Source: Selenomonas sp. (GTDB lineage Bacteria > Bacillota_C > Negativicutes > Selenomonadales > Selenomonadaceae). From it: a stretch of DNA of 53,479 nucleotides. How positions within the stretch are numbered: position 1 is the stretch's first letter; every line of letters starts with the position of its first letter. A model generated the notes under the pieces. The model searched no databases, had not been told where the DNA came from, and saw nothing but the letters and a program-made list of their open reading frames with translations. Positions 3,393-25,888 of the stretch are shown here, piece after piece. Where the stretch lies: contig NZ_JAILKR010000015.1 in NCBI RefSeq assembly GCF_024693525.1, forward strand, positions 1 to 53,479, in the 5' to 3' direction. The position numbers were made by a program, and so were the translations under genes.

Positions 3393-3439
3393 GTACAATA
3401 TATACCGTTACGACAATATTAAACCACAATATATAGGGG
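3393..3439 (+). promoter_or_regulatory. Tandem NrdR boxes upstream of nrdD
   Basis: Two near-palindromic 16-base sites lie at 3393-3408 (GTACAATATATACCGT) and 3424-3439 (CCACAATATATAGGGG). Both carry the core CAATATATA of the NrdR box consensus acaCwAtATaTwGwgt, and their starts are exactly 31 bases apart, three helical turns, as is typical for the ribonucleotide reductase repressor NrdR. They place this gene in the NrdR regulon. Confidence 0.85.
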
Positions 3440-3487: not shown

Positions 3488-5746
3488 ATGAACTTAAAAA
3501 CAGTTACGAAACGTTCTGGCCATACCGTGGCCTATAATCGTGAAAAGATTTTCAATGCCATTGCCGGTGCCAACGTGGATGGTGGCAATAAAATGACCGA
3601 CAAGGATATCGATGAGGTAACCAGTCAGGTCGAATGGGATATCCAGGACCGCGAAAATGTCAGCGTGGAGGAAATCCAGGACATCGTTGAGCAGGAGCTC
3701 ATGAAATACGATTTCTATGATGTGGCGAAAAAGTATATCACCTATCGCCAGAAGCATGCGGAGCGCCGTGCCGCGCAGAAACATTTGATGAATTCCTATC
3801 GGGATATTTTCTTTGCCGATTCGGTGGACGTTGACCTCAAGCGCGATAACGCGAATATCAACACCGATGCCTCCATGGGTATCATGCTGAAACTCGGTGC
3901 GGAAGGTTCGAAGCACTTTGTGGACAACTATGTGCTGACGGATGAATTCCGTGAGGCAGACAAAGAGAACTGGATTCACATCCATGATAAGGATTTCTCC
4001 CTTATTACCTTTAACTGCTGTCAGATTGATCTGTTGAAGCTGTTCCATGGCGGTTTTTCCACGGGCCATGGTTTCCTGCGTGAGCCAAACTCCATCCGTG
4101 CTTATGCCAGCCTGGCCTGCATCGCGATTCAGAGCAACCAGAATGACATGTTCGGCGGCCAGTCCATCAATGCCTTTGACTATGCTATGGCCGAAGGCGT
4201 CCGCAAGTCCTTCCGCAAAGCAGTGATTGACGAGGCTTACAAAGCTCTGCGCTATCAGCTGGCCCAGGATATCGGCAGTGAAAGCGAGTTCAAACAGGAA
4301 TTCAAAAAGGTGATGGCCTTTGATTCCTGCCGCTATACGGAAACCATGGAGAATGAGGGAGCACAGCGTTCCATTGCCGCTATCAAGACGGCAGTGACAA
4401 CTCTGCTGGCAGAAGTCTATCACAAAGAACTGGCAGACCTTGACCGAATCGTTTCGGTCATTTATCAGCTGGCCTGCGAAGATGTGGTGGAAGAGACGCA
4501 TCAGGCCATGGAGGCACTCATCCACAACTTCAATACCCTGCACAGCCGTGCCGGTGCCCAGGTTCCCTTCAGCTCCATTAACTACGGTATGGATACGTCG
4601 CCGGAAGGCCGTCTGGCTGTCCGGGAAGTGTTAAATGCCATCTGGTCGGGACTGGGCAATGGCGAAACGCCGATATTCCCTATTTCGGTATTCCAGCTCA
4701 AGGCTGGTGTCAACTACAATCCGGAAGACCCGAACTATGACCTGTTCCTGCAGGCCTGCAAGACCAGTGCTAAGCGCCTATTCCCGAACTTCGTCAACAT
4801 CGATGCGCCGTACAATCTGCAGTATTACAAACCGGGGGATTACAACAGCGTGGTGGCAACGATGGGCTGCCGCACCCGCGTTATGAGCAACATCAATGGC
4901 CCGGAGGAATCCGGCAGCCGTGGCAACTTTGCCTTCACGACCATCAACCTGCCGAAGCTGGCCTTGGAGTCGAAGGGCGACATGGATAAATTCTGGCAGC
5001 TGTTTGACAAATATATCCAGATAAGCCATGATTATCTGCTGGAGCGCCTGCATGTCATCGAACAGAAACACGTCTATAACTACCCGTTCCTCATGGGCCA
5101 GGGGGTTTGGATGGACAGCGACAAATTGTCCAATGATGACAGCATCAAGGATGTTCTTAAGCATGCGTCCTATTCCATTGGTTTCTGCGGCCTGGCCGAG
5201 TGCCTTAAAGCGCTTACGGGCAAGCATCACGGCGAAAGCGCTGAGGCGCAGGAACTGGGCCTTAAGATTGTCGGGCACCTGCGGGCGGCAACGGATAAAT
5301 ATACGGAAGATGAGCATATGAACTGGTCGACGTTTGGCACGCCGGCAGAATCAACGGCAGGCCAGTTCCAGCGCAGCAACCGCAAGAAATACGGCGTCAT
5401 TGAGGGCGTTACGGACCGCGACTACATGACGAACTCCAGTCATGTCCCGGTATACTATCCGATAAAAGCCATCGATAAAATCCGTATTGAGGCACCGTAC
5501 CACGCCCTTGAAAATGCTGGACATATTGCCTACATCGAGATGGATGGCGATCCGACCAAAAACGTCAAAGCATTTGAGAATGTAGTCCGTGCTATGCACG
5601 ACGCCGATATGGGTTACTTTTCCATCAACCATCCGGTTGACCGTGACCCAGTATGCGGCTACACCGGCATCATCGAAAACGAATGCCCCCATTGCCATCG
5701 TAAAGAAGTTGGCACCGGCCGCTTCACGATAAAACGCATGAAGTAA
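3488..5746 (+). CDS. nrdD: Anaerobic (class III) ribonucleoside-triphosphate reductase homologue lacking the glycyl-radical loop
   Basis: The 752-residue protein has an N-terminal ATP-cone (about 3-95). The NrdD barrel carries FNCC at 175-178, MGCRTR with the predicted thiyl cysteine Cys461, and GNFAFTTINLP at 479-489. The C-terminus reads DPVCGY...ECPHCHRKE and ends at KRMK. Class III enzymes normally continue with an RxxGYL glycyl-radical segment of some 30 residues; none is present here in any frame before the terminator. The first cysteine of the zinc ribbon is also Asp720. No nrdG activase gene is adjacent. The frame is otherwise intact and sits behind NrdR boxes. It may be an inactive or regulatory paralogue, or need a radical domain supplied in trans. 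The family call is firm; activity is uncertain. Confidence 0.9.
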   Translation: MNLKTVTKRSGHTVAYNREKIFNAIAGANVDGGNKMTDKDIDEVTSQVEWDIQDRENVSVEEIQDIVEQELMKYDFYDVAKKYITYRQKHAERRAAQKHLMNSYRDIFFADSVDVDLKRDNANINTDASMGIMLKLGAEGSKHFVDNYVLTDEFREADKENWIHIHDKDFSLITFNCCQIDLLKLFHGGFSTGHGFLREPNSIRAYASLACIAIQSNQNDMFGGQSINAFDYAMAEGVRKSFRKAVIDEAYKALRYQLAQDIGSESEFKQEFKKVMAFDSCRYTETMENEGAQRSIAAIKTAVTTLLAEVYHKELADLDRIVSVIYQLACEDVVEETHQAMEALIHNFNTLHSRAGAQVPFSSINYGMDTSPEGRLAVREVLNAIWSGLGNGETPIFPISVFQLKAGVNYNPEDPNYDLFLQACKTSAKRLFPNFVNIDAPYNLQYYKPGDYNSVVATMGCRTRVMSNINGPEESGSRGNFAFTTINLPKLALESKGDMDKFWQLFDKYIQISHDYLLERLHVIEQKHVYNYPFLMGQGVWMDSDKLSNDDSIKDVLKHASYSIGFCGLAECLKALTGKHHGESAEAQELGLKIVGHLRAATDKYTEDEHMNWSTFGTPAESTAGQFQRSNRKKYGVIEGVTDRDYMTNSSHVPVYYPIKAIDKIRIEAPYHALENAGHIAYIEMDGDPTKNVKAFENVVRAMHDADMGYFSINHPVDRDPVCGYTGIIENECPHCHRKEVGTGRFTIKRMK

Positions 5747-5770
5747 ATAAAAAAGCTCCTTATGAGAATA

Positions 5771-5823
5771 AAACCTCCCCCTATGAGTGACAGTAAAAAT
5801 GTCATCATAGGGGGAGGTTTTTA
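5771..5823 (+). terminator. Strong rho-independent terminator after nrdD
   Basis: A 16-base perfect stem (AAACCTCCCCCTATGA with TCATAGGGGGAGGTTT) extends inward by TGAC/GTCA and is followed by TTTTT. It closely follows the early nrdD stop, so nothing is co-transcribed with nrdD. Confidence 0.9.
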
Positions 5824-5958: not shown

Positions 5959-8900
5959 ATGAAGGAACGGAGATTAAAGACAGCAGTGGCAACATGGTTG
6001 ACAGCGGGAGTGTTTATCGTGCAACCACCGATAGGATTAGCCGCAGCTATAGAGGCAGATCAAAAAGCACCGATGGCAAATCGTCCAATGGTTATGGAGA
6101 CGTCTAATCATTTGCCCTTAGTAAATATAACGACGCCAACGCCTGGTGGGGTGTCGCGAAATTTATATAGTATGTTTGATATCCCCAAAAGTGGTGTCGT
6201 CTTAAATAATGCAACAACTATGACGAATACTAAACTAGCAGGCTGGATTAACAAAAATCCATTTCTGTTAGGTGGAGCGGCAAAGATTATTGTCAATGAG
6301 GTAACAAGTCTCCGGCCGACAAATATCAAGGGCTTTTTAGAAGTAGCAGGGAACAAGGCCAGTGTAGTTATAGCTAATCCAAATGGCATTACCGTAAATG
6401 GAGGGGGATTCATTAATACAGGAAGTGCGTTGTTGACAACAGGAAAGTCACAGTATGATGGTATTGGTAATTTGCAGGACATTCGCGTATCGCAGGGGAA
6501 TGTGGTAGTGGATGGGAATGGACTCAACGGTCGTGAGGCCGATAGTGTGAGTATTTATGCGCGGGCGGCTGAGATAAATGCAGGTTTGTGGGCTGATTAT
6601 CTGAAAGTAGTGACTGGCAGTAATTCTATAAACATGAATACAGGTGAGATTGTACCTATAGCTGCTGAGGGGAAGAAACCGGAAGTTTCCTTGGATATTG
6701 CATCTATAGGTGGAATGTATGCCGGCGTTATCTCATTAGTGGGGACGGAAAAGGGATTAGGCGTTAATTTGAAGGGGACAATTGCAGCTTCGCAAGTATT
6801 GTCCATAGATACCGATGGAACGTTGCATGTTGCAGGCACGGGATGTAGTGAAGGCAATACAGAAATAAAGGCTGATGTAGTAGATAATCAAGGTGTGATA
6901 ACGGCTAATAAAGGGCTGTTGGTGCAAGGAAGAAAAATTGAAAATCATGAAGGCGGTAAGCTTGCTGGTGATGTCATCACATTGAAAAGCCAGTCTCTAA
7001 ATAATCTTCGGAATGAGGAAAAAGAGCATCATTTGCAAGAAGAACAACGAAAGTTGGAAGAAAAACAAAAAGAATTAGAGGATGCGTATGCACAGGATGT
7101 AACGGTATATACGAATGATGCGCAAATCACAGCGTATGAAAAGGATATTAAAGCCGCAACGGTAAATTATGATGAACAGTTGGCAAAAGTTAAAGAAGCA
7201 CGAAGAGAACTAGAGGAGCATTCTGCGGGAATTATTCAGGCTGAAAAGTCCTTAAATATTGAGGCAGATGCGGTACGTAATTCGGCAGGAGCATCAATGA
7301 CCAGTAATAACGAGATTAATATACAGGGAAAGTCTGTGCTCAATCGTGGTGCGTTGATACTAGCTGAGGAAAGTGTCAAGATTCATGCTGATGAGATTCA
7401 AAATAAAAATGAAACATTTTCTATGAGAAGAGAGGCATCAGAATTACAGAAAAATCCACGGCGTATCCGTATTGACCAAGGGGGACATAGAGAGCAGGGA
7501 AAGGTTTTTGATGCGGAAGAATTCCAAAACTTGGATAGCGGCTATGGCGCAAGCCACAAAAATGTTTCAGGAGCGATTCATGATTATACAATAATCGATA
7601 GCAGTTCACAGACTTCAGAGGATAAAGTAACGCTAAATCAGCCTGCAAAGCTCGCAGCAGGGAAGGACATGACATTGCAGGGGAATGTTCAGAATGATAA
7701 TAGCTGGCTGACAGCAACGGATACAATTACGATAAAAGGAAATTTCAAACAAGAGGGAGCACAAAAGCAAGTGCGTACCGTAACTTTTGGGACAACACAG
7801 GGGAGTTATACGTATAAGCGAAAATTCCCGCATAAATCCAGGCGGAGAGGGTATGGTGCTGTGACTTTTATGACGCCGCAGATAGAATTGTCTGAACCGT
7901 CAGGGATTACAATGCCCGATGTAGAAAAAGCACATGAAGAAATTGAAAAAGCCATTGATCCGTTTCAGTTGAAACGGGTTACAGCAGAATATGTGCCGGA
8001 AAAACGACAACGTTATACGGATAAAAAAGAAGTTCTGTCATCTGAGTATATGAAAAAAGAGCGCCTTTATGACCCGCAGCGCATTGCCGGAGAAATAGCA
8101 AGTGTTTCAGACGCGCGTCACTTAGATGGTGTTACGGGAATGGTGCAGGCAAAGAATATTTACATCGTAGGAGATGAAATTGAAAATAATGGTGCTATTG
8201 TCGCGGAAAATGCAACGATGCAGGGCGTAAATATACAGCATCATGGTGTCATGACAGGAAATACTTTGCAGTTGGATGCGAAAGGAAATTTAACCATTAC
8301 GGGCAAAATTGATGGAGACAAGCGCGTTAGCCTGTCTGGTCGTGATGTGACAATCAAGAGTATGGTATCACAATACAAAAATCAAGATACACTCAATCAG
8401 ATTGCGGCAATAGGTGTTGAGGAGGAGAATGGAGAACTTTCGATAAAAGCGGAAAAGGATATAAAAATCCAAGGGGCAGCTTTAAATTCGATGGGAACTA
8501 CTCAGCTTGAAGCAGGGAAGGACATTACCCTTGTTACGCAGAACCTTCATAGTCAGAAAGATATGACCGTTGATTCAGATAATTATTTGCGCACTAGTCG
8601 GGATAAGGTGTTATCCACCCAGATACAGGCGCAGGGGGATATCGTGATTGATGCAGGTCAGGATATGACGGCTGATGCTTCATATTTGGGAAGTCAAAAT
8701 GGGAATATTACTATCAGGGCTGGTAAGGGAATAAATTTACAGGCTGGTAAAGATAAAAGTCATGACCAGTATAGTTTGCAACATAAGGAAAATGGTTTGC
8801 TATCTAGAACGAAAACGTTAACGAGAAGTGATAGTGAACAGGAAAATGTCGTAGGGACAAGTCTAAGTGGAAAAAATGTGATGCTGGATTCTACGGGCTC

Positions 8901-11727
8901 GATTCAGACAGAGGCAACACAAATCGCTGCGGATCAGAATATTAGATTTGAGGCAAAAGAAATAAAAATAGATGCAGCAGCTCAAAAGAACCGCGAACAA
9001 TATGAAAAACAAGTCACCAACGCAGGGCTGATGACAAATGGTCTGGGTATCATGGTTGGCAAGCAGAAGAGAAAAGATGAAGATGACGATAGGTATATAA
9101 CTCAGCAAGGAACGGCAATTGCTACAAACGGGAAAGTAACAATTAAGGCCTCTAAACAGGCAACAATCACCAGTAGTGATATTGTAGCTGCCGAGGGGAT
9201 TGATATCAGTGCTCCAGAAGTGACAATAAATGGTCGGGAAAATATTGAAGAGCATATGCGGAGACACGAAGAAAGCAAGACTGGTATCACCGTAGGCTTA
9301 GGTGGCAATAGCTATCGAGCGATAGAATCTGTAAATCGACCGATACAACGTGCAAACAATGTAAAAGATGATCGGCTCAAGGGACTATATGCATGGCGTG
9401 CAGCACGAGAACTCAAAAAGCATGGAGAGACATTAAAAAATGTTGCTAAGGGTAAGTTGGACATAGGCGTTACTATCGGTGTGGGAAGCAGTCATAGTGA
9501 AAGTAAAACTACTACCAAAAGCCAGGAATATGTCGGTAGTAATATCGAAAGCCAAGAAAATGTAAATCTCAAAGCTACAGAAAGAGATTTATCAATTATC
9601 GGAAGCTTGGTAACAGGCAAGGATATAAATCTGGATGCGAAAGAAAATCTAAAATTACAAGCGGGTGAGAATCGTACTCATACAGAAGTAGTTGAAAAAA
9701 GTCAAAGTGGCGGCTTGAGTATAGATTATTCGTTATCGGGAAAAACATGGGGGAATGGTCTAAATGTCAACTATGGGGAATCGGAGTTACGAGGAAATGG
9801 ATACCAAATCACCTATACAGGCACGGAGATAAGCGCAGAAGGCGCCCTAAATACCAAATCTGGCAGGGATACAACGATAATTGGTTCAACTGCCAGTGGA
9901 AATAAAGTAGAAATGGTTGTTGGTGGAAATCTGGCTCTCGAAACGTTGCAGGATATTGATAATTATCAAGAGCAAAGTCATACAAAGGGCTTTAGCAGTG
10001 ATATTGTAAACGGATTTCGTCCAGATATTGGAATCAATGGGAGTCGTGGGAAAATAGAATCGGAATATCAAAGCACTACTGAGCAAACAGGGATTTATGC
10101 AGGAAAAGAAGGATTCCAAATCAATACCGTAGGGAATACAGATTTAAAGGGATCAGTTATCGCAAGTGAGTCCGCTGCTGACAAGAACAAGTTAAGTACG
10201 GGAACGCTTAGTTGGGAAAATGTAGAAAATAAAGAAGAATATAAGGCAAAAGGAATTGGTTTTTCGTATCATAAGTATGGTGACTTTGATAAGAAAACAC
10301 GCGCAGAAAAAGATGAACTCTATAAAACAATAGGACTTACGCCAAATTTGTCGATGCCAGCACAAGGGAAAGCTAAGAATATCAGCAAATCTGCAATTGC
10401 AAAAGGTGAAATTGCAACTCGAGACAAAAACCAAGATATTAATAGCTTGAGTCGTGATACACAAAATGCGTTATCAAAGTTGGATAAAATATTCGATAAG
10501 AGTACTATACAGGAAAGACAAGAGCTGGCTAGAATATTTGGAGAAGAAGCGTACCGGTTGTCGCATAACATGAAAGACGATGGAAGCGGGAGGAAAATTG
10601 CGGTTCATGCGGCTATAGGCGGAATAATGAGTCAAATAACAGGGGGAGGATTCACTTCAGGTGCAACTGGTGCAGGTGTTAATGAGGCTGTAATAAAAGA
10701 ATTGGGGAAAATAAAAGATCCGGGAACAATACAGGTTTTGAGTGGTATAATAGGTGCTGTAACAGCTAAGATAGTAAAAGCTCAAAGTGAAGCTGGCGCT
10801 GTAACAGCTATAAGCGGAACAAAAAATAATTTTGAAGCAGTTCTTCCAGAATTGAAAAGTATATTATCTTTAGTTGGATGTTATTTAATATTAGAGAATG
10901 GCAAAAATATAATAACAGACAAAGTGGGAAATATGATAGCTGAAATACAGGATGATGGAGAAATTGTATTCGAAAAGGGCAGTGAATGGTTAGAAGACTA
11001 TCTTTTTGAAAAAAATAAAGATGGTCTAAATAATACGACAGAATTTTCGAATAGTTCGATATCTGAGAGTGGGAGCAAAGATACAGAGAAGAGTATATCT
11101 TTCCAAGACTCGTTGGGACATAAGTGGTTTATAGAACCAAACTATGAGCGTGCTGTTCCTAGAGATACCAGTTATTTAGATTTTATAAACAGGCAGAATG
11201 CTACAATTATACAGGATGTGGAAGATTATAAACAAAAGATAGTAAAATATTATGAAGAACAGAATAAATATTTGGAAGCAGATAAGGCAAAACGAGATAA
11301 GTGGTTAGAAGCTTACAATAGAGAAAATAGTGAAAAATGGCGCCGTAGAGAAGATTGTGGGAATAATATAATACCGAAATTGCCGCCGATATCGCTAAAA
11401 ATTAATGAAGATGGAATTATCGTATTCAAAATAACTTTAGGACAAGCATTAGATTTATTAAATAAAGATTCGGTTGATAATACTAAAAGTAAATGGAGAA
11501 CCATAAATAAGGAAAAAACAGGAGGGATTGAACAGGCAAATAAAGATTTTGATAAGCTTAAATTAAAGGATGTAAAAGATATTTATACTCAAGACTATGG
11601 GAAAGGAAAAGTTGGGAAATTGGATGAAGGACATAATGTAACGGTTAGAGAAGGTAGCAAGACAGGAGGTCCTACAATTGAAATACAAAAGGGAAAGAAA
11701 AGATATAAATATAGATATAAAAAATGA
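5959..11727 (+). CDS. TpsA/CdiA-like filamentous haemagglutinin exoprotein with C-terminal toxin-like domain
   Basis: This 1922-residue secreted protein has a basic N-terminus with signal sequence ending near residue 29 (GLAAA). A TPS secretion domain follows at about 45-260 (NPNGITVNGGGFINTGSALLTTG). Next are a charged coiled-coil insert at about 350-422 and long beta-helical haemagglutinin repeats to about 1500. A glycine-rich pretoxin-like region (GGIMSQITGGGFTSGATGAG) precedes a lysine-rich C-terminus. The last 98 residues contain W, ANKDFDKL, VTVREGS and GGPTIEIQKG, a pattern I associate with nuclease-type polymorphic toxin domains. No VENN motif is visible. It is probably exported by the TpsB at 12519 and delivers a toxin by contact; an adhesin role is the alternative. 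The gene is AT-rich compared with the flanks, suggesting transfer. Confidence 0.88.
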   Translation: MKERRLKTAVATWLTAGVFIVQPPIGLAAAIEADQKAPMANRPMVMETSNHLPLVNITTPTPGGVSRNLYSMFDIPKSGVVLNNATTMTNTKLAGWINKNPFLLGGAAKIIVNEVTSLRPTNIKGFLEVAGNKASVVIANPNGITVNGGGFINTGSALLTTGKSQYDGIGNLQDIRVSQGNVVVDGNGLNGREADSVSIYARAAEINAGLWADYLKVVTGSNSINMNTGEIVPIAAEGKKPEVSLDIASIGGMYAGVISLVGTEKGLGVNLKGTIAASQVLSIDTDGTLHVAGTGCSEGNTEIKADVVDNQGVITANKGLLVQGRKIENHEGGKLAGDVITLKSQSLNNLRNEEKEHHLQEEQRKLEEKQKELEDAYAQDVTVYTNDAQITAYEKDIKAATVNYDEQLAKVKEARRELEEHSAGIIQAEKSLNIEADAVRNSAGASMTSNNEINIQGKSVLNRGALILAEESVKIHADEIQNKNETFSMRREASELQKNPRRIRIDQGGHREQGKVFDAEEFQNLDSGYGASHKNVSGAIHDYTIIDSSSQTSEDKVTLNQPAKLAAGKDMTLQGNVQNDNSWLTATDTITIKGNFKQEGAQKQVRTVTFGTTQGSYTYKRKFPHKSRRRGYGAVTFMTPQIELSEPSGITMPDVEKAHEEIEKAIDPFQLKRVTAEYVPEKRQRYTDKKEVLSSEYMKKERLYDPQRIAGEIASVSDARHLDGVTGMVQAKNIYIVGDEIENNGAIVAENATMQGVNIQHHGVMTGNTLQLDAKGNLTITGKIDGDKRVSLSGRDVTIKSMVSQYKNQDTLNQIAAIGVEEENGELSIKAEKDIKIQGAALNSMGTTQLEAGKDITLVTQNLHSQKDMTVDSDNYLRTSRDKVLSTQIQAQGDIVIDAGQDMTADASYLGSQNGNITIRAGKGINLQAGKDKSHDQYSLQHKENGLLSRTKTLTRSDSEQENVVGTSLSGKNVMLDSTGSIQTEATQIAADQNIRFEAKEIKIDAAAQKNREQYEKQVTNAGLMTNGLGIMVGKQKRKDEDDDRYITQQGTAIATNGKVTIKASKQATITSSDIVAAEGIDISAPEVTINGRENIEEHMRRHEESKTGITVGLGGNSYRAIESVNRPIQRANNVKDDRLKGLYAWRAARELKKHGETLKNVAKGKLDIGVTIGVGSSHSESKTTTKSQEYVGSNIESQENVNLKATERDLSIIGSLVTGKDINLDAKENLKLQAGENRTHTEVVEKSQSGGLSIDYSLSGKTWGNGLNVNYGESELRGNGYQITYTGTEISAEGALNTKSGRDTTIIGSTASGNKVEMVVGGNLALETLQDIDNYQEQSHTKGFSSDIVNGFRPDIGINGSRGKIESEYQSTTEQTGIYAGKEGFQINTVGNTDLKGSVIASESAADKNKLSTGTLSWENVENKEEYKAKGIGFSYHKYGDFDKKTRAEKDELYKTIGLTPNLSMPAQGKAKNISKSAIAKGEIATRDKNQDINSLSRDTQNALSKLDKIFDKSTIQERQELARIFGEEAYRLSHNMKDDGSGRKIAVHAAIGGIMSQITGGGFTSGATGAGVNEAVIKELGKIKDPGTIQVLSGIIGAVTAKIVKAQSEAGAVTAISGTKNNFEAVLPELKSILSLVGCYLILENGKNIITDKVGNMIAEIQDDGEIVFEKGSEWLEDYLFEKNKDGLNNTTEFSNSSISESGSKDTEKSISFQDSLGHKWFIEPNYERAVPRDTSYLDFINRQNATIIQDVEDYKQKIVKYYEEQNKYLEADKAKRDKWLEAYNRENSEKWRRREDCGNNIIPKLPPISLKINEDGIIVFKITLGQALDLLNKDSVDNTKSKWRTINKEKTGGIEQANKDFDKLKLKDVKDIYTQDYGKGKVGKLDEGHNVTVREGSKTGGPTIEIQKGKKRYKYRYKK

Positions 11728-12073
11728 AGTGTTAAGAGGTGAAATAAAAGCAATACTTTCTCCGATGATTGGGTTAGAACAAAATGTTGTTGAATTGATG
11801 ACTAAAGAGAACGGATTGAAAGTGATGGTAGAAGGTGAAGAAAAAGCTGTATATTTTTACTTTGAGAATGTTAGTGAATATATTGTTGTTGATAGATTTG
11901 GGGTTTTTTATACTACATACAATGAGTCGTTTAGATATTATTACCAAGAAGAATTTAACAATATATTATATAGTGTAAAAAAAAATAATGGGGAAAGTGC
12001 ATTTTTAGTTGTTACAGAAAATTATTTTATTGAAATTACAGCAGATAATTGGGAGTTGTGTGAACGTATGTGA
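11678..12073 (+). CDS. Probable immunity protein for the TpsA C-terminal toxin
   Basis: This 131-residue, very AT-rich gene is not recognised by family. It starts with TTG at 11678, seven bases after GGAGGT that lies inside the tpsA coding sequence, so its first 50 bases overlap the end of tpsA in another frame. Such overlap is common for toxin-immunity pairs because it couples production. The protein is soluble, without signal or TM segments, acidic overall, and rich in beta-forming aromatic residues (VYFYFENVSEYIVV). Cytoplasmic neutralisation of the adjacent toxin domain is inferred from position and gene structure alone. A later internal start is possible. Confidence 0.65.
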   Translation: MKYKRERKDINIDIKNEVLRGEIKAILSPMIGLEQNVVELMTKENGLKVMVEGEEKAVYFYFENVSEYIVVDRFGVFYTTYNESFRYYYQEEFNNILYSVKKNNGESAFLVVTENYFIEITADNWELCERM

Positions 12074-12155
12074 TGGTGGAGTGATTTTTGTGCGTATACA
12101 TTTTGTCTTATGATGATGCCTTTATAGAAAAAATTAATAATAAAATGGTGTTAGT

Positions 12156-12515
12156 ATGAAAAAACTTGTTAGTGTAATAAAAGGAAAGTATAAGTTACAA
12201 ATTCAATTGAATGAATTTGATCGAGATGATACTGGGCTGAATGTAAAAATGATAGGTGATGAAATAATCTATGATATAAGTTTTGGATATATATCAGGTT
12301 TCTTTGAAAAGAAAATAAAGCTAAATATAGAACCTGGCATATATTTATACAATAAGAATAATCTTTTTTTAGAAACTATGAAAGAATGGAAAAAAGCAAT
12401 TTATGATGAAAATCAAAAACAATATATTATAGTCGGTGAAAATTCGTTTTTGCTTGTGTTATCAGAATGGAAAGTTGAAATAAATAAAGTTATTAATAGA
12501 AGGAAAATGGAGTAA
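12156..12515 (+). CDS. Small orphan protein between immunity gene and tpsB
   Basis: The 119-residue cytoplasmic protein is not recognised. It is very AT-rich, lacks signal and TM segments, and its beta-rich pattern (DIIYDISFGYISGFFEKKIKLNIEPGIY-type alternation) and size resemble the preceding gene. The Shine-Dalgarno is poor (TGGTG before ATG). Its position between toxin-immunity and the transporter matches the small O gene of the Burkholderia-type bcpAIOB layout, or it may be an orphan immunity gene left from an earlier toxin. It ends three bases before the tpsB start. Confidence 0.55.
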   Translation: MKKLVSVIKGKYKLQIQLNEFDRDDTGLNVKMIGDEIIYDISFGYISGFFEKKIKLNIEPGIYLYNKNNLFLETMKEWKKAIYDENQKQYIIVGENSFLLVLSEWKVEINKVINRRKME

Positions 12516-12518
12516 AAA

Positions 12519-14195
12519 GTGAGAGCCTTAAAACAATTAATAGGAATTATATGTAGTATAGGATATATCGTAAATGTTCAGTTTGTTGATGCAGCGCCAA
12601 ATGACAACCTGCAAGATTCACGATTGCAGGCGCAGGATAGGCAGAATCGTTTAGAGCAGTCTAGAGTACAGCTGGACGCGGATGCGTCTGGAACTTTGAA
12701 CAATGGAGTTTCTACTGCAGGAGATGCTGTTTGTTTCCCTATACGGACAGTAAAGATTATAAATCAGATGGATAAGTTCGTTTGGTTGGAACAGTACTTG
12801 CGCAAATATGTCGGTAAAGATTATTCATTGTCGGGAATCAACCAATTGGTAAATGATATAAACAGAGTTCTGGTTCGGCGCGGATTTGCCACTACGCGTG
12901 TGGTGGTACCGGAGCAGAACATTGCTCAGGGAACCTTACTGTTGGTATTAGAGGAAGGTCGTATTGGCAAAGTGACAGCTCGTGCAGGAGCAAAGAATGT
13001 ATATTGGAAGTCAGCATTTCCATTCAGAGAAGGGGATATTCTAAACATTCGCAATATTGAGCAAGGCATAGAGCAGATGAAAAGGCTTCCAAATCAAGAG
13101 GTAAAAGTTAAGTTGATTCCATCAGAGCAACAGGGCTATACCGATATTTCTTTAGAGGTGAAACGGGGAAGAAATATCTATGGTTCTATTGCTTTTGATG
13201 ATTCTGGACTTGAGAGTACCGGAAAATATCAATGGTTTGGCAATCTAGCTTGGGATAATCTTTTGAATCAGCAGGATACTTTGCGGATAGGGATAAATTT
13301 AGATGGCACGCATTCGGGTTATGAAAAGGGAACGCGTGAGCAGGATGTGTTCTATTCGATTCCCTATGGGAGAAGTACGTTCTTAGTTGCTTATCAGCAA
13401 TCGAAATACCATCAACAGATGCAAATGGAGCCAGTTGCGTTTCAGAATGCGGGAAAGTCGGATTTGACAAAGTTTACCTGGGATTATGTACTTCATCGGA
13501 CAGGAAGTATGAAAAATAGTATGGATGTCAGCATACGTAAGCGTAATTCGCATAGCTATATTAATGATATGGAAATTCCTGTTCAAGCACTCCATGCTAC
13601 TGCTATGGAAGTCGGTTATGCGGAACGCTTGTATCTGGGGCAGGCTATGGCATATTTTCGATTAGGACATCGATTTGGGGTAGATTGGTTAGGGGCACAA
13701 CAGGATTATTCTTATGATGGAGCTCCTAGTACGAAATATAATATGTGGTTATTGGATGCTGATTTTCGTCAACCGTTTGAACTAGGGCATCGGTCAGCGG
13801 TATTTACAACTTCTTTTCATGGACAGTGGACAATGGATGATAGACCCCTTTATGGTGTAGATAGGATAAGCATGGGAAATCGTTACACAGTAAGGGGATT
13901 TAGTGGCAAATACACTCTTATGGCGGGGAATGGTTGGTTTTTACGTAATGAAGTGGCGAACCAATTGCCACGTTGTAATAGCCAATTATATCTAGGGGCT
14001 GATGTCGGTAGTGTTTATGGAGATGGGAGTGAGGAATATCAGGGACATGCATTAGTGGGATGTGTTTTAGGCTTGCGTGGTAATTGGGGAAAAGATATTC
14101 GTTATGATACATTCGTATCAAAACCTTTGCGAAAACCGGTTGGTTTTGATACGTCGAAAGTAACCGGAGGAATAAGTCTGGTCTGTAGCATATAG
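12519..14195 (+). CDS. TpsB/ShlB-type outer-membrane transporter (two-partner secretion)
   Basis: The 558-residue Omp85-superfamily protein is predicted to export the TpsA upstream. It has a signal sequence (about 1-26) and a Gln/Arg-rich N-terminal linker. POTRA-type domains span about 70-215 (RGFATTRVVVPEQNIAQGTLLLVLEEGRIG is typical of the ShlB POTRA_2 region). A C-terminal 16-strand barrel includes the VRGF motif of family motif 6 (GNRYTVRGFSG). It ends in a hydrophobic strand (ISLVCSI). The start is GTG at 12519 with TGGAG five bases upstream. Gene order A-I-orphan-B places it last in one transcription unit. Confidence in family is high. Confidence 0.9.
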   Translation: MRALKQLIGIICSIGYIVNVQFVDAAPNDNLQDSRLQAQDRQNRLEQSRVQLDADASGTLNNGVSTAGDAVCFPIRTVKIINQMDKFVWLEQYLRKYVGKDYSLSGINQLVNDINRVLVRRGFATTRVVVPEQNIAQGTLLLVLEEGRIGKVTARAGAKNVYWKSAFPFREGDILNIRNIEQGIEQMKRLPNQEVKVKLIPSEQQGYTDISLEVKRGRNIYGSIAFDDSGLESTGKYQWFGNLAWDNLLNQQDTLRIGINLDGTHSGYEKGTREQDVFYSIPYGRSTFLVAYQQSKYHQQMQMEPVAFQNAGKSDLTKFTWDYVLHRTGSMKNSMDVSIRKRNSHSYINDMEIPVQALHATAMEVGYAERLYLGQAMAYFRLGHRFGVDWLGAQQDYSYDGAPSTKYNMWLLDADFRQPFELGHRSAVFTTSFHGQWTMDDRPLYGVDRISMGNRYTVRGFSGKYTLMAGNGWFLRNEVANQLPRCNSQLYLGADVGSVYGDGSEEYQGHALVGCVLGLRGNWGKDIRYDTFVSKPLRKPVGFDTSKVTGGISLVCSI

Positions 14196-25686: not shown

Positions 25687-25719
25687 AAGTTCTGTCAGTT
25701 ATGGAGTACCTGACAAATT

Positions 25720-25795
25720 GCTGATTTAGCTCAGTTGGTAGAGCAGCTCATTCGTAATGAGCAGGTCGTAGGTTCGAGTCCTATAATCAGCTCCA
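25720..25795 (+). tRNA. tRNA-Thr (anticodon CGU)
   Basis: A full 76-base cloverleaf is visible: acceptor arms GCTGATT/AATCAGC, D-arm TAGCTCAGTTGGTAGAGC, anticodon arm GCTCA-TTCGTAA-TGAGC with anticodon CGT, T-arm with TTCGAGT, and an encoded CCA end. It reads ACG codons. Confidence 0.95.
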
Positions 25796-25802
25796 TATCT
25801 TT

Positions 25803-25878
25803 GCTGATTTAGCTCAGTTGGTAGAGCAGCTCATTCGTAATGAGCAGGTCGTAGGTTCAAGTCCTATAATCAGCTCCA
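25803..25878 (+). tRNA. tRNA-Thr (anticodon CGU), second copy
   Basis: Identical to the copy seven bases upstream except for one base in the T-loop (TTCAAGT instead of TTCGAGT). It encodes CCA and shares the promoter and terminator, so both are processed from one transcript. Confidence 0.95.
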
Positions 25879-25888
25879 TTGAAAGCGT

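What the first reader, a model, noticed from the sequence alone, without database searches (positions are those of the whole stretch)
3488..5746. NrdD homologue that stops before the glycyl-radical loop
The ATP-cone, the FNCC and MGCRTR cysteines and the full barrel are intact, but the protein ends at KRMK. Class III reductases go on there to the RxxGYL segment that holds the essential glycyl radical. The zinc-ribbon's first Cys is Asp720, and no nrdG is adjacent. Yet the frame is clean for 752 codons, sits behind two NrdR boxes and ends in its own strong terminator, which argues for selection. Either this is a repurposed or regulatory paralogue, or it uses a radical domain supplied in trans (as YfiD does for pyruvate formate-lyase).
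Basis: partly seen in the sequence, partly recalled or inferred. Interest (0 to 1): 0.75.

Follow-up and report, generated by a model that had tools for sequence, protein, structure and literature searches.

The report
Anaerobic DNA-precursor enzyme in two pieces
In Selenomonas and its relatives the oxygen-sensitive enzyme that makes DNA building blocks appears to be split, with the small part that carries its essential radical made by a separate gene beside its activator, a split not found described for this enzyme class in bacteria and one that many phages also carry a piece of.

Summary
In detail: window 3488-5746 is a clean 752-aa NrdD that stops 16 residues after its zinc ribbon, before the RxxGYL glycyl-radical segment. 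It is no error or decayed paralogue: 69 of 80 related loci also end without the segment and dN/dS is low. The missing segment is a separate gene. All 22 genus genomes searched hold a short NrdD-type radical-domain ORF; 21 of their NrdDs end without it, one is cut at a contig end. The small protein matches positions 709-744 of the NrdD model of which the window protein matches 3-712. It precedes an NrdG-like gene in 6 of 7 genus loci read and mostly has its own NrdR-box pair. No class I/II reductase was found in 20 of 22 genus genomes. Family members hold an nrdD-grd-nrdG cluster; 78 of the 80 best viral loci carry a small radical-domain ORF. Best reading: an obligate split class III ribonucleotide reductase with a trans glycyl-radical subunit. 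Binding and activity are inferred; the window's own assembly was not held.

The parts
3393..3408 (+). NrdR-like box 1 (GTACAATATATACCGT)
   Evidence: 12 of 16 matches to a recalled consensus; same place in 14 of 16 relatives
3424..3439 (+). NrdR-like box 2 (CCACAATATATAGGGG), 15-bp spacer
   Evidence: 13 of 16 matches; such pairs hit 6 of 829 control tiles, all over nrdD or grd promoters
3488..5746 (+). nrdD, class III ribonucleotide reductase catalytic subunit lacking the glycyl-radical segment
3500..3760 (+). ATP-cone (residues 5-91)
   Evidence: PF03477 5e-22
3848..3856 (+). NAN (residues 121-123), taken as the NxN flap that in P. copri NrdD contacts the radical domain
   Evidence: invariant; role from passages of PMC11226230
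4010..4021 (+). FNCC motif (F175-C178)
4862..4873 (+). MGCR finger loop with the expected thiyl-radical Cys461
   Evidence: invariant M459 G460 C461 R462
5645..5695 (+). zinc ribbon with Asp720/Cys723/Cys733/Cys736
   Evidence: all four invariant in 25 rows, split and full
5770..5821 (+). transcription terminator hairpin
   Evidence: -37.3 kcal/mol, 0 of 200 shuffles as stable

Best explanation
The gene encodes the catalytic subunit of an obligately split class III (anaerobic) ribonucleotide reductase. The catalytic chain keeps the ATP-cone, barrel, thiyl cysteine and zinc ribbon but not the glycine loop. The loop is a separate protein of about 94 aa (call it the trans GRD subunit): a predicted beta-beta-alpha-beta-beta N-domain, then the NrdD-type tail FERIRRITGYLVGTIDRWNDAKRAEEHDRVKH, encoded just upstream of nrdG in most loci read. 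Proposed working: NrdG puts the radical on the small subunit's glycine; the tail docks into the NrdD barrel and passes the radical to Cys461; NrdR represses both loci so that the parts are made in step. Shown: gene content, complementarity to one NrdD model, conservation in all genus genomes searched, purifying selection, like box pairs, no other RNR found in most genomes. Inferred: binding, site of the radical, activity, NrdR action, and presence of the small gene in the window's own unheld assembly.
For: Complementary halves: window NrdD covers PRK07111 3-712/746, the small protein 709-744. 22 of 22 genus genomes carry a small GRD ORF; 21 of 22 show an NrdD ending at model position 531-534, and G013's match stops at a contig end. 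In the family, 105 of 107 genomes of at least 90% completeness match the GRD profile: three (G155, G161, G162) only inside a full-length NrdD, 102 in frames of their own, some of these interrupted; 106 of 107 have an NrdD match. No PF02867 in 20 of 22 genus genomes and 87 of 107 family genomes; no monomeric class II RNR over cut-off in 107, and the 13 weak matches all lie in PF02867-positive genomes. The ORF after the small gene in G001 is NrdG over cut-off (TIGR02491 158 vs 126.1 bits); 6 of 7 first-copy genus loci show an NrdG-like start within 90 nt, L112 does not. nrdD-grd-nrdG lies in one cluster in 4 of 4 form-A loci read, nrdG told there by eye. Box pairs: 14 of 16 relatives' nrdD at spacer 15; 13 of 20 grd loci at spacer 13-16. 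dN/dS medians 0.095 (GRD) and 0.056 (NrdD), 12 sequences each, dS near saturation. RIRRITGYLVGT invariant in 38 rows.
Against: No biochemical proof. The window's own assembly is not held, so its small gene was not read; the nearest genome shares 48% of sampled words. The complex was not modelled; alone, the small protein's radical tail is predicted at low confidence (pLDDT about 50), and so is the NrdD model from residue 716 on. G177 has a short NrdD match and no GRD match, but its contig ends there. G150 has neither. Three family genomes keep a fused NrdD as their only hit, and at least seven (G122, G126, G134, G136, G137, G139, G172) hold a full-length or nearly full-length NrdD besides (list cut).
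Confidence: 0.9

Rival explanations
1. The truncated NrdD is a repurposed, non-catalytic paralogue (for example a nucleotide sensor using the ATP-cone), and the small radical protein serves something else.
For: It lacks the radical segment on its own chain. Some family genomes hold two truncated NrdDs (G094, G095, G097, G098).
Against: No other RNR found in 20 of 22 genus genomes; catalytic residues invariant; small protein is NrdD-type and NrdG-linked.
Confidence: 0.04
2. The small protein is a spare part that repairs oxygen-cut NrdD or pyruvate formate-lyase, as YfiD does, rather than an obligatory subunit.
For: Small NrdD-type radical proteins occur beside full-length NrdD in other families of the phylum, and the tails resemble the genome's own NrdD, most closely in G610 and G440 (GYLSTVDRFNDAK), less in G463, G417 and G304.
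Against: In the 21 genus genomes where the NrdD end is seen, it never has its own radical segment, so the part cannot be merely spare. Of glycyl-radical models its tail matches only those of NrdD.
Confidence: 0.04
3. Sequencing error, frameshift or recent gene damage removed the C-terminus.
For: None found.
Against: 69 of 80 loci end 16-30 residues after the ribbon; no continuation in other frames; dN/dS 0.056.
Confidence: 0.01
4. The truncated NrdD works without any glycyl radical, with NrdG or another source making the thiyl radical directly.
For: No complex has been shown.
Against: A conserved glycyl-radical protein exists in all 22 genus genomes searched, mostly behind a like box pair; the NxN flap, which contacts the GRD in P. 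copri NrdD, is invariant.
Confidence: 0.01

Closest known systems
Class III ribonucleotide reductase NrdD/NrdG (P. copri 8p23, T4 1h78, S. thermophilus 9d3x)
   Different: Radical glycine on a second polypeptide that has an extra N-domain
YfiD/GrcA and T4 Y06I autonomous glycyl radical cofactors of pyruvate formate-lyase
   Same: Small stand-alone glycyl-radical protein used by a large partner
   Different: NrdD-type tail; partner has no radical segment of its own; linked to nrdG. PMC8683613 (passages) says only these two spare parts for PFL were validated and speculates about others
Split class II RNR NrdJa/NrdJb of Pseudomonas aeruginosa
   Same: An RNR in two polypeptides in a free-living bacterium
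   Different: Class II, B12-dependent; NrdJb mediates thiol exchange, not a radical. PMC4520616 (passages) calls the proteobacterial split NrdJ the only split RNR found in a non-viral organism
Split nrdD genes of phages (introns, inteins, fragments)
   Same: nrdD in pieces
   Different: PMC3653736 (passages) describes interrupted or fragmented genes; no dedicated radical subunit in the passages seen

Membership tests
Class III RNR catalytic subunit NrdD | NRDD core above curated cut-off | tested here: met
   PF13597 581.6 bits, cut-off 26.2; PRK07111 955.1 vs 764
Class III RNR catalytic subunit NrdD | Finger-loop thiyl cysteine | tested here: met
   C461 in MGCR, invariant in 25 rows
Class III RNR catalytic subunit NrdD | C-terminal glycyl-radical segment on the same chain | tested here: not met
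   Ends at model position 531 of 562; no RRITG in the window
Class III RNR catalytic subunit NrdD | Four-cysteine zinc ribbon | tested here: not met
   Asp720/C723/C733/C736, the same in six full-length relatives
Class III RNR (two-gene system) | NrdG activase in the genome | tested here: met
   TIGR02491 over cut-off beside the small gene in nearest genome G001; the window's own genome is not held
Class III RNR | Ribonucleotide reduction with a glycyl radical | not testable with these tools
   Needs protein
Autonomous glycyl radical cofactor (YfiD/GrcA) | Stand-alone protein with RxxGY radical loop | tested here: met
   94-98 aa ORFs
Autonomous glycyl radical cofactor (YfiD/GrcA) | PFL-type tail | tested here: not met
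   Of glycyl-radical models only those of NrdD match
Autonomous glycyl radical cofactor (YfiD/GrcA) | Partner keeps its own radical domain (repair only) | tested here: not met
   In 21 of 22 genus genomes NrdD ends without it; one is cut at a contig end
Split RNR of the NrdJab kind | Both parts needed for activity | not testable with these tools
   Needs genetics or protein

The most novel reading that the evidence does not exclude
The NrdD radical domain is an exchangeable cartridge shared between bacteria and their phages. Oxygen destroys only a ~10-kDa part that can be replaced cheaply. One small subunit may serve two catalytic subunits (G094, G095, G097 and G098 hold two truncated NrdDs and one GRD match). 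Phages carry the cartridge alone to run or re-arm the host enzyme. Elsewhere in the phylum the same kind of protein is a spare part for intact NrdD, a possible step towards the obligate split.
Probability: 0.5. Interest if true: 0.88.

Novelty: new variant of a known kind. Interest (0 to 1): 0.8.

Why it matters
Class III reductases are drawn as one catalytic chain holding its own radical plus an activase. A natural split in which the radical sits on a small separate protein would let radical installation, docking and transfer be assayed one by one, and would give candidate spare-part proteins for a glycyl radical enzyme other than PFL, which PMC8683613 left as speculation (passages). In most of the genomes searched it would be the only source of deoxynucleotides by reduction that was found. 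Trees and annotation that filter by length or take one chain as complete would miss the radical half. The phage copies suggest that viruses supply the radical part of a host enzyme.

Tried and rejected
Frameshift or read-through: no RRITG in six frames of the window and none in three frames after the stop. Fold of the small protein's N-domain: Foldseek against PDB and BFVD gave no match at E<=0.001; the model is modest (mean pLDDT 72). Homology of the N-domain of the spare-part type (eight ORFs, from L232-L241) to the Selenomonas type: hhalign probability 0.4%, not supported. The Selenomonas-type N-domain HMM, built without the radical tail, finds 128 of 185 small GRD ORFs at E<=0.01 (its own training rows and near-copies among them) and 3 of 14,000 decoys, one of these an interrupted GRD. 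Rfam on the insertion in L265: no match. Named phage records gave 14 matches and plasmids 28, none counted as covering 80% of the query. Paper searches that bear on novelty: no class III RNR with a separate radical subunit seen in the listings or in the passages read; only open-licence PMC papers are held. One search was a failed count (pattern error), repeated. A first label of 'split' for nine RRTCGY-type full-length NrdDs was corrected before the tree. A 20-base region of G526 fetched was of no use, so that genome's full NrdD was not compared.

Full report

The missing piece. In the nearest held genome, G001, the same Pfam model gives a second match, positions 532-562, in a separate short frame. 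The protein there (98 aa from a GTG, 95 from the likelier ATG) ends FERIRRITGYLVGTIDRWNDAKRAEEHDRVKHGMRH and is followed, after 63 bp, by an NrdG of 167 aa. It matches PRK07111 709-744, taking up where the window protein leaves off. G001's contig C30 has the length of the Selenomonas ruminantium WCT3 contig FNCM01000015.1 (67,289). The window's own assembly is not held, so its copy is inferred.

How general. All 22 genus genomes searched have the small ORF; 21 show an NrdD that ends at model position 531-534, and in G013 the match stops at a contig end. In 107 family genomes of at least 90% completeness, 105 match the small-protein profile: three of them (G155, G161, G162) only inside a full-length NrdD, and some, such as G131 and G139, in pieces because of an insertion. 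An NrdD match is found in 106; at least seven of these genomes hold a full-length or nearly full-length NrdD besides (G122, G126, G134, G136, G137, G139, G172; the list was cut). PF02867, the class I/II large subunit, is in 20 of 107 and 2 of 22 genus genomes; the same search rang in 11 of 14 control genomes. No monomeric class II enzyme passed cut-off in 107; the 13 weak matches lie in PF02867-positive genomes. So in 20 of 22 genus genomes the split enzyme is the only reductase found. G150 had no NrdD, GRD or PF02867 match; G177's NrdD stops at a contig end.

Regulation and selection. Pairs of NrdR-like boxes lie upstream of nrdD in the window and in 14 of 16 relatives, always 15 bp apart; L024 and L030 gave none. 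Upstream of the small gene, 13 of 20 loci have a pair 13-16 bp apart. The other seven are two second copies (L105, L106, none), three where the gene directly follows nrdD (L154, L158, L160: a weak pair 25 apart or none), and L111 and L186 whose best pair is 28 and 26 apart. In 829 overlapping control tiles six scored, all over the nrdD or small-gene promoters. The box consensus is recalled; passages of PMC12051234 give 16-bp palindromes and binding at 14-17-bp spacers. dN/dS medians are 0.095 (small protein; 0.037 for its tail) and 0.056 (NrdD), 12 sequences each, with dS near saturation. A hairpin lies between the small gene and nrdG in L002 (z -3.2, 2 of 200 shuffles as stable).

Evolution. 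Two NrdD forms exist in the family. Form A sits in an nrdD-grd-nrdG cluster (4 of 4 read, nrdG told by eye); form B, the window's, stands apart from the small gene. G094, G095, G097 and G098 hold both truncated forms but one GRD match each. A 90-row quick tree needs at least seven changes between split and full; full-length L063, L066 and L067 are sister to form B, the split side having SH-aLRT 88 (LG+G4, long branches flagged). Other families of the phylum have a shorter radical ORF between a truncated nrdD and an nrdG-like frame: L247 and L251 wholly, L246 with the nrdD end; L075 and L076 show the radical ORF after a truncated nrdD. Yet others have a small NrdD-type radical protein beside a full-length NrdD (G610, G440, G463, G417, G304); the tails agree best in G610 and G440. 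These are candidate NrdD spare parts.

Phages. 341 viral stretches encode a relative. Of the 80 best, 78 carry a small radical ORF: 70 with no nrdD or nrdG found in the fetched stretch (often short), 8 with a separate nrdD lacking it, 5 of these also with nrdG; 2 have the segment inside a long NrdD. L267 has portal and major head genes, and the second copy in G003 lies near a terminase. Three of 76 viral ORFs scanned have a box pair upstream.

Judgement. The parts, their linkage and their joint conservation make a split class III reductase by far the simplest reading. What is not shown is that the proteins bind and that the radical sits on the small one. In print, PMC4520616 called the split NrdJ of Proteobacteria the only split RNR of a non-viral organism (passages), and PMC3653736 describes interrupted nrdD genes in phages (passages); the searches made turned up no class III enzyme with a separate radical subunit.

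Noticed in passing
L265 807-1816 (-), genome G131: The small radical gene is cut right after RITG by an insertion with an HNH-like reading frame; the tail YLVGT... resumes at its end. Possibly a group I intron, but Rfam gave no match.
   Followed up: partly
L266 592-3912 (-), genome G139: An in-frame intein-like insert of several hundred residues sits in NrdD at MG|C, directly before the thiyl cysteine.
   Followed up: no
L146 8073-8399 (G003) and L106 (G011): A second, diverged radical-subunit gene; in G003 it lies near ParA/ParB-like genes and a terminase, so probably a prophage copy.
   Followed up: partly
L063 and L064, contig JAFXTD010000019.1 (63,547 bp): The two end pieces of this contig share 5,027 identical bases, so it is probably circular; it carries a full-length NrdD sister to the split form.
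   Followed up: partly
L130, L132, L133, L134, L136, L139, L140, L141, L142: NrdDs of other families of the class have RRTCGY in place of RRITGYL at the radical loop.
   Followed up: no
L002 1627-1655: Terminator-like hairpin between the small radical gene and nrdG, perhaps setting more radical subunit than activase.
   Followed up: partly
window 5959-14195 (+): Two-partner secretion system: 1922-aa TPS/haemagglutinin protein, two small ORFs without Pfam match, then a ShlB-type transporter.
   Followed up: partly
window 25718-25879: Tandem 83-bp repeat, two copies 98% alike, that reads like a duplicated tRNA gene; ARAGORN was not run.
   Followed up: no
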